A program made the position numbers and the translations under genes. From assembly GCA_029974875.1 (NCBI GenBank), contig JARKQP010000840.1, positions 1 through 5,686 of the forward strand: DNA of 5,686 nucleotides, written 5' to 3'. This document shows, piece after piece, positions 534 through 5,500 of the stretch. The DNA is from Mobilitalea sp. Lineage in GTDB: Bacteria; Bacillota_A; Clostridia; Lachnospirales; Lachnospiraceae. Below the pieces are notes generated by a model. It worked only from the letters and a program-made list of their open reading frames with translations, had not been told where the DNA came from and did no database searches. Numbering within the stretch: position 1 is the stretch's first letter; each line of letters starts with the position of its first letter.

Positions 534-723
534 ATAAGGGACACATAAGATAAGAGAGCTTATAAGATAAGGACACTTATAGACAAGGGAACTTATAAGA
601 TAAGAAAATTTATAAGATAAGAAAACTTATAAGATAAGAAAACTTATAGATAAGAAAACTTATAAATAAGAAAACTTATAGATAAGGGAACTTATAGATA
701 AGGGAGCTTATAGATAAGGGAGC
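528..723 (+). repeat. Minisatellite of ~12 tandem 16-17 bp units
   Basis: Units begin at 528, 545 (short, lacking TT), 560, 577, 593, 610, 627, 644, 660, 676, 692 and 708. There are two length classes, TTATAAGATAAGAAAAC (17 bp) and TTATAGATAAGGGAGC (16 bp). Units at 610 and 627 are identical, as are those at 692 and 708. Central units carry AAAAC and outer ones GGGARC or GGACAC, which suggests local duplication and homogenisation. A degenerate remnant (TTAAAACAGATAGGGAT) continues to about 740. The array starts in the last codons of rqcH and fills most of the rqcH to hisK spacer. Both frame and stop codons argue against it being coding. A role is unknown; slippage-driven expansion is the simplest explanation. 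Confidence 0.95.
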
Positions 724-755
724 TTAAAACAGATAGGGATAAAGACTATTGATAA

Positions 756-1717: not shown

Positions 1718-2848
1718 CTACTTCATAATCGTTCCGCCACCGACCACATAATCTCCTTGGTAAAAGACCACTGCCTGTCCCGGTGTAATGGCTCTCTGTG
1801 GCTCTTCAAAAATACAAAGCACCTCATCTTCACCGGTTCTGCGGATAATACATTTAGCTCCCTTGTGGCTATACCGGATCTTTGCCTCAACCTCCAGCTC
1901 ACCTTCTAAATCAGGGATTGCCATAAAATTCAAGCGGTTGGCCCTTAGACGGTCTGAAAATACTTCATTTGCATTACCGAGTACCACTTCATTGGTTCCC
2001 GGCCTTAACTCTATTACAAAGACTGGTTGTCCCATTGCAATCCCAAGTCCCTTGCGTTGTCCGACGGTGTAATGTACAAGCCCCTTATGGGTTCCAAGGA
2101 TTTCCCCGGCTGTATTTACATAATTGCCTGGCTGCAAGCCTGAGTAATCCGATTTATCCAAAGAGGCGTCTCCCTGGTTAACTAAGGATTTCTCATTTTC
2201 TACGAGATAATTTTCGATAAAATCCGCATAATTATTATCCGGAATAAAGCAAATCTCCTGACTGTCCGGTTTATTTGCAACCGGCAGAGCCAGCTCCTTC
2301 GCCAATGCCCTGATCTCATCCTTGGCAAATTCGCCTACCGGCATTAAGGTATGGGCTAATTGGTGCTGGGTCAGATTATATAGGGCGTAAGTCTGATCCT
2401 TTGCCTGGGTAACTGATTTCTTGATGGTATACCTGCCATTAGGAAGCTTCGTTATACTTGCATAGTGCCCGGTCGCAATATAGGAAGCCCCTAACCTTAA
2501 GGAGCGCGTTAATAATGCTTCCCATTTCACATAGCGGTTACAGGCGATGCAGGGATTAGGTGTTCTTGCCTGCAGGTATTCACCGACAAAATAATCGATG
2601 ACATTGGTCCTGAATTCCTGCTTGAAGTTCATCACATAATAGGGAATGTCAAGAACTGCCGCCACCCGTCTTGCATCTTCAACTGCACTGAGGCCACAGC
2701 AGCCGCCATTTTCCTCTATGGAGCAGGCATCCTCCTCCTGCCATATCTGCATGGTAATACCGATGACATCATAGCCCTGCTTTTTTAAAAGGTATGCCGC
2801 AACGGAGGAATCCACACCTCCCGACATTCCGACTACTACTTTTTCCAT
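1718..2848 (-). CDS. mnmA: tRNA-specific 2-thiouridylase MnmA
   Basis: This is a 376-residue cytoplasmic enzyme that activates U34 of tRNA(Lys/Glu/Gln) with ATP and inserts sulfur to give 2-thiouridine. The N-terminal PP-loop ATP-pyrophosphatase motif is SGGVDSS (residues 9-15). The active-site segment TPNPCIACN carries Cys100 and Cys103, and SQEICFIPD carries Cys200. GHYA (127-130), KDQTYALY (150-157) and [11 protein letters not shown] (260-270) are also conserved. The C-terminal beta-barrel domain is complete and ends in VVGGGTIMK. By alignment from memory, Cys103 is the Escherichia coli Cys102 equivalent and Cys200 the Cys199 equivalent; position 100 is Asp in E. coli. An extra Cys-rich insert (Cys42, Cys50, Cys51, in NGGCCGLSA) follows the first strand-helix unit. 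The start ATG overlaps the iscU stop in TAATG, indicating translational coupling and operon membership behind iscU and iscS, its likely sulfur donor. Confidence 0.97.
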
Positions 2849-3285
2849 TAATATTCTACTTCCTCTTCCTCTTCATGGATATCAGACTTCGGCTTCTCCA
2901 GCCCTTCGATCTTGATCCCGTTCTTCTCCGCATAATCCCAGAGGGCTGCATGAATTGCTTCCTCTGCAAGCAGGGAACAGTGGACCTTTACCGGAGGCAG
3001 GCCATCCAATGCTTCCATAACTGCCTTATTGGTAACCTGGAGGGCTTCCTGCACTGATTTTCCCTTTACCAGCTCTGTTGCCATGCTGCTGGTTGCAACT
3101 GCTGCACCACAGCCGAAGGTCTTAAATTTAACATCATTAATGATGCCATCCGGGGCAATATCAAGATAGATCCTCATGATATCCCCGCATTTTGCATTAC
3201 CTACGGTGCCAACACCGCTTGCGTTCTCTATTTCTCCCATATTCCTTGGGTTTGTAAAATGATCCATAACCTTTTGAGTATACAT
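2848..3285 (-). CDS. iscU: Fe-S cluster assembly scaffold IscU (NifU N-terminal type)
   Basis: This 145-residue scaffold builds [2Fe-2S] and [4Fe-4S] clusters with sulfur from IscS. The three cluster cysteines are Cys33 (NAKCGD, with Asp35), Cys59 ([14 protein letters not shown]) and Cys103 ([11 protein letters not shown], preceded by His102). The sequence LPPVK (96-100) matches the peptide recognised by the HscA chaperone in proteobacteria, although no hscA or hscB is present here. The protein is a stand-alone scaffold domain; the NifU C-terminal Nfu domain is absent. It ends in an acidic tail (HEEEEEVEY) whose purine-rich codons, GAGGAAG-like, also lie just upstream of the mnmA start. The start is supported by GGAGG at 3293-3297, 7 nt from the ATG. 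A 184-nt structured spacer separates it from iscS, while its stop overlaps mnmA by one base. Confidence 0.96.
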
Positions 3286-3297: not shown

Positions 3298-3330
3298 ACT
3301 GTTAAAATTAATACTTGTTCCTTCTTATAT

Positions 3331-3391
3331 CCATGCCCTCATATAGAACAAAACGCCATGAAATAATGGCATGGTTCCTGCATTTCTATAT
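3331..3391 (-). other. Interleaved inverted repeats in iscS-iscU spacer
   Basis: Two perfect inverted repeats are interleaved. CCATGCC (3331-3337) pairs with GGCATGG (3368-3374), and ATATAGAA (3341-3348) pairs with TTCTATAT (3384-3391). The order a-b-a'-b' means they form either an H-type pseudoknot or two alternative folds in the operon transcript. A third hairpin, GCCAT (3355-3359) with ATGGC (3366-3370), competes with the first. The element ends about 33 nt before the iscU RBS. No known riboswitch family was recognised. Confidence 0.45.
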
Positions 3392-3409
3392 ACCGTAATT
3401 TATTCACAC

Positions 3410-3468
3410 TAACGGACATTTGGCCGCAAGGCCACGGGGTGCCAGATGTGAAATGCTCTGTATTCCAC
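3410..3468. repeat. Palindromic repeat element, copy A (iscS-iscU spacer)
   Basis: This 59-bp copy begins TAACGGACATTTGGCC and matches the two copies upstream of iscS in length and orientation. The inner hairpin TGGCC-GCAA-GGCCA (3421-3434) is perfect with a different tetraloop. The outer stem (GG-a-CATT with GGTGCC) is kept with two G-T pairs. The right-hand hairpin (GTGAAAT with ATTCCAC, one mismatch) is partly decayed. The flanking word CACACTATTTC (3466-3476), shared with copy C, contains the iscS stop codon. Confidence 0.85.
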
Positions 3469-3469
3469 A

Positions 3470-4648
3470 CTATTTCTTTTTCATAAAGTCCTCGTAAAGA
3501 GGTGACATCTGACGGAGCTTATCCACAATTTCCTTGATCTGGTCAACGGTATAATTGATTTCCTCCTCCGTATTCTCCTCACTCAAGGTCAGGCGCAAGG
3601 AGCCGTGGGCTATTTCATGGGGCAGGCCGATTGCAAGAAGTACATGGGAAGGATCCAGGGAGCCTGAGGTACAGGCCGAACCGCTGGATGCACAGATGTT
3701 CTTCATATCCAGCATGATCAGAAGGGATTCGCCTTCAATGAACTGGAAGCTAAAATTAATGTTATTGGGCAGCCTCCTGACCTTATCCCCGTTCACACGG
3801 ACAAATGGAACCTCAGCCAGCACACGCTTCATTAACAGCTCCTTTAATTTAATTTCCTTATCCGTCCTCTCCTTCATGGTTGCCAAGGCGATCTCTGCGG
3901 CTTTACCAAAGCCTACGATCCCCGGTACATTCTCGGTTCCGGCACGCCTTTGTCTTTCCTGGGCACCGCCATGGATAAAGGAGCGGATCTTAACACCTTT
4001 TCTGATGTAGAGCAGACCAATTCCCTTCGGGCCATTCAGCTTATGGGCGCTGGCGCTCAGCATATCAATGTTTAATTCCTTTACATCTATCGGTACCTGT
4101 CCATATGCTTGTACAGCATCAGTGTGGAACAGGATATTATGCTTTTTTGCGAACTCACCGATTTCCTTAACCGGTTGGATTGTACCAATTTCATTATTTG
4201 CAAACATGACTGAGATTAATACGGTTGTCGGACGGATTGCCTTTTCTAACTGGTCCAGCTTAAGGATACCATTTTCATCAACATCCACATAGGTCACTTC
4301 ATAGCCATGCTTCGCTAAATATTCGCAGGTATGAAGGATTGCATGATGCTCAATCTTGGAGGTAATGATGTGGTTGCCCTTGTCCCCATAAGCATCCAGT
4401 GCAGCCTTTAATGCCCAGTTGTCCGCCTCGGTGCCGCTGGCGGTAAAATAAATCTCGGAGGGATCCGCACCAATCACTTTGGCTACTGTGATCCTTGCAT
4501 CATCGATGGCCTTCTTGTTCTGTGTTGCATATTCATAAACGCTGGAAGGATTACCGAATAAATCTGTAAAGTAAGGGAGCATTGCCTCCACAACTTCCGG
4601 CCTGGTTTTTGTTGTAGCCGCATTATCAAGATATATCTTCTTCTCCAT
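3470..4648 (-). CDS. iscS: Cysteine desulfurase IscS (NifS-like, class V aminotransferase fold)
   Basis: This 392-residue PLP enzyme converts cysteine to alanine and carries the sulfur as a persulfide to IscU and MnmA. Visible landmarks are YLDNAATT (6-13), SGTEADNWA (71-79), His101 in IEHHAILHTCE, NNEIG (151-155), Asp177 in HTDAVQ and the PLP Lys203 in SASAHK. RAGTEN (235-240) follows. The catalytic Cys326 sits in SSGSACTSGS on the long mobile loop typical of group I desulfurases. Length is near the E. coli IscS length of 404. The start is supported by AGGAG at 4657-4661, 8 nt from the ATG. It lies 136 bp after iscR and 184 bp before iscU, and both gaps hold copies of the same palindromic element. 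Its TAG stop lies inside the flank of copy A. A nitrogenase-specific NifS role is unlikely, as no nif genes are visible. Confidence 0.96.
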   Translation of the reverse strand: MEKKIYLDNAATTKTRPEVVEAMLPYFTDLFGNPSSVYEYATQNKKAIDDARITVAKVIGADPSEIYFTASGTEADNWALKAALDAYGDKGNHIITSKIEHHAILHTCEYLAKHGYEVTYVDVDENGILKLDQLEKAIRPTTVLISVMFANNEIGTIQPVKEIGEFAKKHNILFHTDAVQAYGQVPIDVKELNIDMLSASAHKLNGPKGIGLLYIRKGVKIRSFIHGGAQERQRRAGTENVPGIVGFGKAAEIALATMKERTDKEIKLKELLMKRVLAEVPFVRVNGDKVRRLPNNINFSFQFIEGESLLIMLDMKNICASSGSACTSGSLDPSHVLLAIGLPHEIAHGSLRLTLSEENTEEEINYTVDQIKEIVDKLRQMSPLYEDFMKKK

Positions 4649-4656
4649 GTTGTCAT

Positions 4657-4661
4657 CTCCT
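4657..4661 (-). promoter_or_regulatory. Ribosome binding site of iscS
   Basis: AGGAG on the - strand, 8 nt upstream of the ATG at 4648. It lies 12 nt beyond the end of palindromic copy B, so the hairpin should not mask it. Confidence 0.8.
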
Positions 4662-4673
4662 AATATATAATAT

Positions 4674-4732
4674 TAACGGACATTTGGCCGTCAGGCCAGT
4701 CAATGCCGGATGTGAAATGATCTTCATTTCAC
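4674..4732. repeat. Palindromic repeat element, copy B (upstream of iscS)
   Basis: This 59-bp copy has three nested or adjacent stems. The outer stem is CGG-a-CATT (4677-4684) with AATGCCG (4702-4708). The inner hairpin is TGGCC-GTCA-GGCCA (4685-4698). The right hairpin is GTGAAATGA-TCT-TCATTTCAC (4712-4732), a perfect 9-bp stem. It differs from copy C at only four positions. The left flank lacks the TCATTTCAC arm that precedes copy C. Confidence 0.9.
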
Positions 4733-4734
4733 GC

Positions 4735-4793
4735 TAACGGACATTTGACCGTCAGGTCACTCAATGCCGGATGTGAAATGATTTTCATTTCAC
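4735..4793. repeat. Palindromic repeat element, copy C (end of iscR)
   Basis: This copy is tandem to copy B with a 61-bp period. The inner hairpin is TGACC-GTCA-GGTCA (4746-4759), where G-C at 4687/4696 of copy B is replaced by A-T at 4748/4757. The right hairpin GTGAAATGA-TTT-TCATTTCAC spans 4773-4793. The preceding TCATTTCAC (4724-4732) and following GTGAAATGA (4773-4781) form perfect 9-bp terminal inverted repeats around the core, as in a MITE or REP-like unit. On the - strand the right-most arm reads GTG AAA TGA, the last two codons and stop of iscR. Confidence 0.9.
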
Positions 4794-5267
4794 ACTATTT
4801 CCACATGTTTGTTTCGCCTTGGTGTCTGTCGTACCTATTCCAGCTTGAACCTTCCTGCTTTCGGCCACCAGTTCAGAAAGCTTTATTGCATCCACTGCGT
4901 CATTTATACTATCACTTATACGCTTCCAAACATATTTTGTTACACAGGAATCCGCATTGCTGCAATTACCTTCATTGCTGGTTACCATGGAACAATCCAC
5001 AGGGCTTAAGTCGCCCTCAAGGGCTCTTAGGATATCTCCAACGGAAATTTCCTCCGCCGGAAGGGCAAGCTTATAACCGCCTTGCGCTCCCCGGATGCTT
5101 GTCACAATTCCCGCCTTTTTCAGCTTGGCAATCAGCTGTTCTAAATAGTTTATCGATATACTTTGTCGTTCAGCAATCTGACTAAGGGCTATGGCCTCGT
5201 CATCAGCGTGAACCGCAAGATCTAAAACCGCCCGTAAACCATATCTGCCCTTGGTAGATAACTTCAT
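4785..5267 (-). CDS. iscR: Rrf2-family Fe-S regulator IscR
   Basis: This 160-residue winged-helix transcription factor of the Rrf2 family is predicted to sense Fe-S status through a bound cluster and to control its own operon. The N-terminal MKLSTKGRYGLRA, the recognition helix region SINYLEQLIAKLKKAGIV (38-55) and the wing SIRGAQGGYKLA (57-68) are classical. The cluster region has Cys92, Cys102 and Cys108 (CX9CX5C), whereas E. coli IscR has CX5CX5C; a fourth cysteine, Cys155, lies in the tail. The E. coli fourth ligand His107 corresponds to Lys111 here (CVTKYVW). The start is set by AGGAGGT at 5276-5282, 8 nt from the ATG. It is the first gene of the operon, with a strong promoter 150 bp upstream. 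The last residues (Val, Lys and stop) are encoded by an arm of palindromic copy C. CymR-type Rrf2 regulators lack this cysteine set, so IscR is preferred. Confidence 0.93.
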   Translation of the reverse strand: MKLSTKGRYGLRAVLDLAVHADDEAIALSQIAERQSISINYLEQLIAKLKKAGIVTSIRGAQGGYKLALPAEEISVGDILRALEGDLSPVDCSMVTSNEGNCSNADSCVTKYVWKRISDSINDAVDAIKLSELVAESRKVQAGIGTTDTKAKQTCGNSVK

Positions 5268-5446: not shown

Positions 5447-5500
5447 TATTTTTTCTTGGTATTTCCTATGAAGTATTTTTTCTTGGTATTTCCTATGAAG
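5447..5500. repeat. Perfect 27-bp tandem duplication upstream of -35
   Basis: Two identical 27-bp copies occupy 5447-5473 and 5474-5500. Each has a T6 tract, CTTGG and TATTTCCTATGAAG. The first copy begins at the base next to the -35 box. On the - strand each copy places an A6 tract and a TAGGAAATACC word upstream of the promoter. The exact identity indicates a recent duplication. Confidence 0.95.

What the first reader, a model, noticed from the sequence alone, without database searches (positions are those of the whole stretch)
4674..4793. Compensatory base change in a duplicated palindromic element before iscS
Copies B and C differ at four of 59 positions. Two of the differences are the two sides of one base pair: G4687-C4696 in copy B is A4748-T4757 in copy C, which keeps the inner hairpin perfect. 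The other two are unpaired (the 3-nt loop of the right hairpin and the AGTC/ACTC linker). Copy A, far more diverged, also keeps this stem (TGGCC-GCAA-GGCCA). This pattern suggests that folding, as RNA or as a cruciform, is under selection. A role in mRNA processing or differential stability between iscR and iscSU-mnmA would be reasonable.
Basis: partly seen in the sequence, partly recalled or inferred. Interest (0 to 1): 0.7.

Follow-up and report, generated by a model that had tools for sequence, protein, structure and literature searches.

The report
Dispersed RNA-hairpin repeats inside operons
The two look-alike hairpins between iscR and iscS belong to a family of short folded repeats scattered through the genomes of a few related bacteria, mostly lying in the sense direction of the genes around them and with base changes that keep the fold, so they most likely act as folded RNA inside messenger RNAs rather than as something special to iron-sulphur genes.

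Summary
It is not chance. Both copies, with copy A, belong to a dispersed ~61-nt repeat family, here called X: 57 matches in the closest genome G001, 26 in G002, none in four others, and no Rfam family. Over 73 units the three-helix fold is 92.7% paired, with 104 two-sided changes against 34.8 in shuffles. A tree-aware test puts 8 of 20 structure pairs against 4 of 1933 other pairs at p<0.01; a stricter pooled test found none significant. Between co-directional genes X lies in sense in 51 of 56 gaps. X is over-represented at stop codons (20 of 51, 9.5 expected). The downstream genes sampled are diverse, and G001 lacks copy A, so nothing points to an isc-specific role. Best reading: a mobile-type structured repeat tolerated, or used, as a self-contained intercistronic RNA hairpin pair. 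No mobilising enzyme was found (only Y1 was sought). A sister element, type Y, ends at start codons in other Lachnospiraceae.

The parts
4735..4797 (-). Copy C, full unit as modelled (TA...TTA); overlaps the 3' end of iscR
   Evidence: cmsearch 91.8 bits, E 2.2e-18 (this copy was in the model's training set); alignment A1
4674..4736 (-). Copy B, tandem to C with a 61-nt period; shares the TA at 4735-4736 with copy C
   Evidence: alignment A1; repeats
3410..3472 (-). Copy A, between iscS and iscU; its first TAG is the iscS stop codon
   Evidence: cmsearch 77.4 bits (in the training set); ORF end 3470; absent from G001 at this place
4773..4793 (-). Helix P1 of copy C (4785-4793 with 4773-4781, loop 4782-4784)
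   Evidence: fold; pair counts
4738..4769 (-). Helix P2 of copy C (4764-4769 with 4738-4740 and 4742-4744, bulge 4741), enclosing P3
   Evidence: pair counts
4746..4759 (-). Helix P3 of copy C (4755-4759 with 4746-4750); holds the pair A4748-T4757 of the finding
   Evidence: pair counts; all 5 pairs show two-sided changes, 4 of 5
4685..4698 (-). Helix P3 of copy B, with pair G4687-C4696
4785..5267 (-). iscR (Rrf2 type); last codons and stop lie inside copy C
   Evidence: ORF list; name from the sequence
3470..4648 (-). iscS, 25 nt after copy B
2848..3285 (-). iscU
   Evidence: name from the sequence
1718..2848 (-). mnmA
   Evidence: name from the sequence, recalled

Best explanation
Copies A, B and C are members of family X, a dispersed, modular, ~61-nt structured repeat. 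X appears to insert at a TA (often the TA of a stop codon), multiplies in tandem, and is kept mostly in the sense orientation of the transcript. In mRNA it would fold into two independent domains: hairpin P1, and P2/P3 with a one-sided TTGAG-type internal loop and a bulge. I infer that it acts as a passive, self-contained intercistronic structure: a fold just after a stop codon that shields the 3' side of the upstream message or marks a processing point, while leaving the next ribosome-binding site free. Shown computationally: the family, the fold, covariation (shuffle, slide and tree tests, not the pooled null), sense orientation, an excess at stop codons, and no occlusion of the ribosome-binding site in silico. 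Inferred: mobility, the TA duplication as a general rule, and the stabilising or processing role (about 0.35 for that last step).
For: Dispersed family: 57 matches in G001, 26 in G002, 0 in G003-G006. Fold: 92.7% of cells paired against 25-40% when slid, 104 two-sided changes against 34.8 shuffled, 0/500; likewise on 94 matches fitted to the model (92.0%, 168 against 60.9). Tree-aware: 8 of 20 structure pairs against 4 of 1933 others at p<0.01 on a tree of unpaired columns; 4 of 20 against 2 of 1933 on the all-column tree. Five orthologous sites, window or G001 against G002: 10 pairs changed on both sides and kept, 2 on one side. Orientation: 51 sense, 5 antisense in tandem gaps, p 6e-11; 9 of 9 divergent gaps nearer the gene it reads into; 7 of 10 convergent gaps nearer the gene it follows. 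Not replication: in convergent or divergent gaps of G001 it agrees with the local majority strand in 4 of 9 gaps (5 of 10 copies), against 28 of 31 copies that agree with the genes in tandem gaps. Stop codon: 20 of 51, 9.5 expected, p 5.5e-5 (the -13 to +9 range was chosen after seeing the distances). TA ends: empty sites AAATAATATTA (L004) and GATAAG (G001). SD openness 0.57 native, 0.52 removed, 0.50 shuffled, 20 sites.
Against: A pooled R-scape-like null on the same alignment gave 0 significant pairs; 10 of the top 16 pairs were in the structure, but columns 58-61 of the internal loop, not paired, ranked above them. Alignment A2 was fitted to the fold. Five tandem gaps hold X antisense. At the five orthologous sites 20 of at most 200 cells no longer pair. 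No mobilising enzyme found: no Y1 transposase in G001; the three in G002 have unrelated ends, though one X copy lies about 1.2 kb from a Y1 fragment (L158); other transposase families were not sought. No transcript data. The G-U excess is modest (46 against 28), and at the very pair of the finding it is 7 G-U to 5 A-C. The openness difference against removal of X is not significant (p 0.26).
Confidence: 0.6

Rival explanations
1. Purely selfish small repeat: the stems are kept because they are needed for transposition (hairpin recognition on DNA), and antisense or coding insertions are merely weeded out.
For: Dispersed, tandem and with differing subfamilies in G001 and G002; conserved unpaired ends AGTG and GTTA; presence/absence differs between window and G001; diverse neighbours.
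Against: Stems also differ by compensatory changes at orthologous, presumably old, sites. Sense bias is very strong inside tandem gaps, whereas pneumococcal BOX only mirrors coding strand bias (60.8% on the leading strand) and is over-represented between convergent genes (PMC3049150 section 6).
Confidence: 0.25
2. DNA-level element that moves through single-stranded DNA (IS200/IS605 or REP type); sense orientation is a by-product of lagging-strand targeting.
For: Two hairpins on one strand, a bulge in P2, no terminal inverted repeats; Y1 transposases in G002. The comparison with IS200/IS605 ends is recalled.
Against: No Y1 match in G001, which carries at least as many copies; the three G002 Y1 genes have unrelated flanks; orientation is unrelated to the local majority strand where gene context is neutral, 4 of 9 gaps (small).
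Confidence: 0.08
3. Cis-regulatory RNA that senses a signal and controls the next gene, for example by hiding its ribosome-binding site.
For: Fold and conserved unpaired positions; 15-61 nt before the next start in 17 of 51 tandem gaps; sister type Y ends at start codons.
Against: Downstream genes are diverse (8 of 10 scanned had Pfam families, 3 of them transport proteins, otherwise no common theme); also found at 3' ends in convergent gaps; the site is not occluded in silico.
Confidence: 0.1
4. Translated link between cistrons (MIRU-like): an ORF in the unit couples neighbouring genes.
For: In copies B and C an ATG occurs in P1, that of copy C overlapping the iscR stop, and the frame stays open (sequence).
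Against: The ATG is present in 37 of 92 units and the frame is open for 17 or more codons in 21 of 92.
Confidence: 0.03

Closest known systems
BOX elements of Streptococcus pneumoniae
   Same: Short, modular, partly tandem, structured when transcribed, no clear functional class of neighbours (matched passages and section 6 of PMC3049150 seen)
   Different: BOX mirrors strand bias (60.8% leading) and is over-represented between convergent genes. X is sense in 51 of 56 tandem gaps and not enriched between convergent genes (10 of 75 gaps; background 64 of 581 pairs). Sequences were not compared.
ERIC and Correia elements
   Same: Repeats inside transcripts; reported to trigger RNase cleavage, ERIC depending on orientation (passages of PMC3049150)
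   Different: X has no terminal inverted repeats, which I recall as a feature of Correia elements. ERIC and Correia sequences were not compared with X.
REP/BIME with RAYT transposase (recalled)
   Same: Intercistronic hairpins, dispersed
   Different: No Y1-type transposase found in G001; strong sense bias.
MIRU (recalled, not read)
   Same: Tandem repeats in operons, oriented with the genes (recalled)
   Different: Reading frame not conserved.
Prokaryotic MITEs
   Same: Non-coding, small; TA next to the element at two sites
   Different: No terminal inverted repeats and no matching transposase found among the Y1 genes looked at.

Membership tests
MITE | Terminal inverted repeats | tested here: not met
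   First 12 and last 12 nt inside the TAs match as inverted repeats at 4.03 of 12 on average over 93 units, 4.62 when shuffled
MITE | Target-site duplication | tested here: inconclusive
   TA on both sides at iscR-iscS against the empty site in L004; a second site agrees on the left only
MITE | Autonomous partner with matching ends | tested here: inconclusive
   Only Y1 genes were sought, in G001-G003; flanks of the three in G002 are unrelated. Other transposase families not tested.
REP/BIME | RAYT (Y1) transposase in the genome, flanked by copies | tested here: not met
   one X copy 1.2 kb from a Y1 fragment in L158; G001 may be incomplete
BOX | boxA-boxB-boxC module sequence | not tested
   No direct comparison with box sequences was made
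BOX | Enriched between convergent genes | tested here: not met
   10 of 75 gaps against 64 of 581 background pairs
MIRU | Conserved open frame overlapping neighbouring stop/start codons (recalled) | tested here: not met
   21 of 92 units
Known Rfam family | Covariance-model match | tested here: not met
   No match overlapping X
Intrinsic terminator | GC-rich hairpin followed by a U run | tested here: inconclusive
   Scan of 3300-4900: 2 found, 1.6 expected; one weak match (6 pairs, an alternative stem, AT tail) overlaps the end of copy B at 4693-4674, none at copy C or copy A

The most novel reading that the evidence does not exclude
X is one branch of an undescribed superfamily of modular RNA elements in Lachnospiraceae. 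All branches start with the same hairpin module (TTAGTGTGAA...TTTCACA) joined to different second modules (X, Y, Z, W). They spread from site to site as RNA parts: some sit after stop codons (X), while others (Y) carry a fixed leader up to and including the start codon of unrelated genes, so that a mobile repeat supplies translation-initiation or mRNA-stability modules across the genome.
Probability: 0.35. Interest if true: 0.75.

Novelty: new variant of a known kind. Interest (0 to 1): 0.5.

Why it matters
Small bacterial repeats are often read as DNA parasites that survive in the harmless ends of transcripts. A family that sits inside runs of co-directional genes, mostly in sense, with a fold kept by compensatory change, would be a natural set of dozens of replicate insertions for testing how a transplanted RNA structure alters mRNA decay, processing and translation. 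The sister type that ends at start codons would make the question of how leaders spread between genes directly testable.

Tried and rejected
Rfam at gathering and relaxed thresholds: no family for X or Y; only an unrelated S10-Clostridia leader in L293 and weak snoRNA-type hits elsewhere. Plasmids and phages by blastn: no match for X; IMG/VR: no exact match to one 24-base pattern of X. Y1 transposase as mover: not supported, for lack of matching ends. Lagging-strand explanation: weak. MIRU-like ORF: rejected as a family property. SD sequestration: not seen. A pooled covariation null called no pair significant; I kept it as a result against. IscS in viral contigs gave 4 relatives at 31-56% identity. 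Two of the seven G001-G002 site matches (L130/L150, L143/L102) were dropped as not the same site, one for low identity, the other after reading its flanks. RNAalifold on the type Y alignment gave little structure. Literature listings found nothing on such repeats in Lachnospiraceae: terms repetitive extragenic palindromic/Lachnospiraceae; phytofermentans/repeat/intergenic/palindromic; intergenic repeats/Clostridia/stem-loop/interspersed/operon; Lachnospiraceae/structured RNA/intergenic/repeat element/covariation; miniature inverted-repeat/Lachnospiraceae; small interspersed repeats/dispersed repeats/Clostridiales/hairpin/intergenic; Herbinix/repetitive elements. A MITE review (PMC10969869, passages only) had no occurrence of Clostridi, Lachnospir or Firmicutes. 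This covers only the held open-licence library. Listings for MIRU and translational coupling were seen and no paper opened.

Full report
What is in the window. The minus strand carries iscR (4785-5267), iscS (3470-4648), iscU (2848-3285) and mnmA (1718-2848) (names from the sequences). Copies B and C stand in tandem with a 61-nt period between iscR and iscS; copy A stands between iscS and iscU. B and C differ at 4 of 59 positions exactly as reported. The end of iscR lies inside copy C, and the iscS stop TAG is the first three bases of copy A.

It is a dispersed family. No whole genome is held for the window. An IscR search named the nearest relatives: L001 (97%), a Clostridiales MAG, and L002 (90%), a Herbinix MAG. 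A DNA search with copy C found 57 matches in the genome of L001 (G001, with 40 of 62 first-look candidates scored), 26 in that of L002 (G002), and none in G003-G006. Counts are therefore lower bounds.

The fold. 73 of 90 extracted units were aligned. I named the fold by hand from single folds and the alignment: P1 9 bp, P2 6 bp with a bulge, P3 5 bp with a loop starting in an invariant T. On A1, 92.7% of cells pair (shuffled 87.0), 11 of 20 pairs have changes on both sides, 104 cells carry them (shuffled 34.8; 0 of 500), and slid versions pair 25-40%. RNAalifold on its own recovered P3 and the base of P2, with 6 of 8 pairs showing two-sided changes, but not P1. On 94 model-fitted matches (93 distinct) the picture is the same. 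Because copies are related, I tested co-change on trees: with a tree of the 23 unpaired columns, 8 of 20 structure pairs and 4 of 1933 other pairs reach p<0.01; with all columns, 4 of 20 and 2 of 1933. A pooled R-scape-like null gave no significant pair; 10 of the top 16 pairs were in the fold, but a block variant in the internal loop (columns 58-61) scored higher. So covariation is supported by the shuffle, slide and tree tests and not by the pooled null.

Orthologous sites. Protein matches between 46 G001 and 34 G002 loci gave seven candidate shared sites. Two were dropped; at the other five (iscR-iscS, L114/L149, L124/L152, L138/L224, and L213/L226, which I take for bcd-etfB; the downstream gene has an ETF domain, the bcd name is recalled) 10 pairs differ on both sides and stay paired, 2 differ on one side and stay paired, and 20 of at most 200 cells are unpaired. 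At iscR-iscS three P3 pairs are exchanged between window copy C and G002; window and a G001 unit there differ by one compensatory pair. Conversion from other copies or re-insertion cannot be excluded.

Orientation. With one row per gap, 75 gaps had genes on both sides (40 in G001, 33 in G002, 2 in the window). Between co-directional genes the element is in sense in 51 and antisense in 5 (p 6e-11). In divergent gaps it is nearer the gene it reads into in 9 of 9; in convergent gaps nearer the gene it follows in 7 of 10. The mix of gaps (56 tandem, 10 convergent, 9 divergent) resembles the background of 458, 64 and 59 pairs, which was taken from the same G001 regions, chosen around copies. Replication does not explain it: in G001's convergent or divergent gaps orientation agrees with the local majority strand in 4 of 9 gaps (5 of 10 copies). 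Gene calling was by longest open frames, so some calls may be wrong.

Ends and sites. The 5' edge lies within -13 to +9 nt of the upstream stop in 20 of 51 tandem cases (9.5 expected, p 5.5e-5). That range was set after seeing the distances. At iscR-iscS the empty site in L004 reads AAATAATATTA and the filled one AAATA-[element]-TAATATTA; 29 of 31 loci examined there lack X. At iscS-iscU 14 of 14 relatives lack X; G001 reads GATAAG where the window has copy A, and L007 has another hairpin element at the same stop codon. This fits insertion at TA, frequently that of the stop codon, but two sites do not make a rule. The ends are not inverted repeats.

RNA or DNA. Single steps away from Watson-Crick pairs go to G-U 46 times and to A-C 28 times on the sense strand (p 0.024; three doubtful pairs left out), as expected for sense RNA and not for a cruciform. 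The effect is modest, and the alignment allowed G-U. Folding 20 sites in silico, the next ribosome-binding site is as open with X as without it (0.57 and 0.52, p 0.26) and slightly more open than with shuffled X (0.50, p 0.027). X thus looks self-contained. Terminator-like matches in 3300-4900 are at chance (2, 1.6 expected), one of them weak and overlapping the end of copy B.

Neighbours. Of ten downstream proteins chosen from the 40 printed, eight have Pfam families: ATP synthase b, an FAD protein, a glycosidase, three transport proteins, DnaE and ETF; two have none. There is no isc theme.

Comparison with the known. The nearest kinds are BOX, ERIC/Correia, REP and MITE repeats. X works like an ERIC- or BOX-type structured repeat in transcripts, but does not meet features tested here (inverted repeats, Y1 partner, convergent bias, open frame). 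I therefore file it as a new variant of the short interspersed structured repeats, not as a member of any named family.

Noticed in passing
L187:1498-1590, L276, L278, L292, L285 and 24 other loci: Type Y leader, matched in 18 of 99 genomes: conserved ACGCAA(C/A)TTTGTGCCTGCGGCCCAAAGTTTGCAGG...GAAAGGCATGGTTATTAATATG, ending at the start codon of unrelated genes in 26 of 29 copies; no Rfam match in the loci scanned; possible CCTGC x GCAGG pseudoknot without clear covariation.
   Followed up: partly
L162 and L165 near 1501-1567 (G030): X-like unit whose 3' part carries GGAGGTTAATATG, i.e. a ribosome-binding site and start codon.
   Followed up: partly
window 3303-3402: Further palindromic stretch after copy A (GCCAT...ATGGC within TATATAGAA...TTCTATATG), absent in G001; one arm is a weak terminator-like match at 3372-3353; possibly another module.
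   Followed up: no
window 537-727: Tandem array of a 16-17-nt AT-rich unit (GATAAGAAAACTTATA) after the first gene.
   Followed up: no
window 5447-5500: Perfect 27-bp tandem duplication upstream of iscR, next to a promoter-like TTGACA...TATAGT on the minus strand (by eye); possible regulator site.
   Followed up: no
L007 iscS-iscU gap; L198 and L206 (G028): Type W hairpin element (TAATGTGAATTAT... or similar...CTTGTTCTTCCGGGT) at the same iscS stop codon where the window has X.
   Followed up: no
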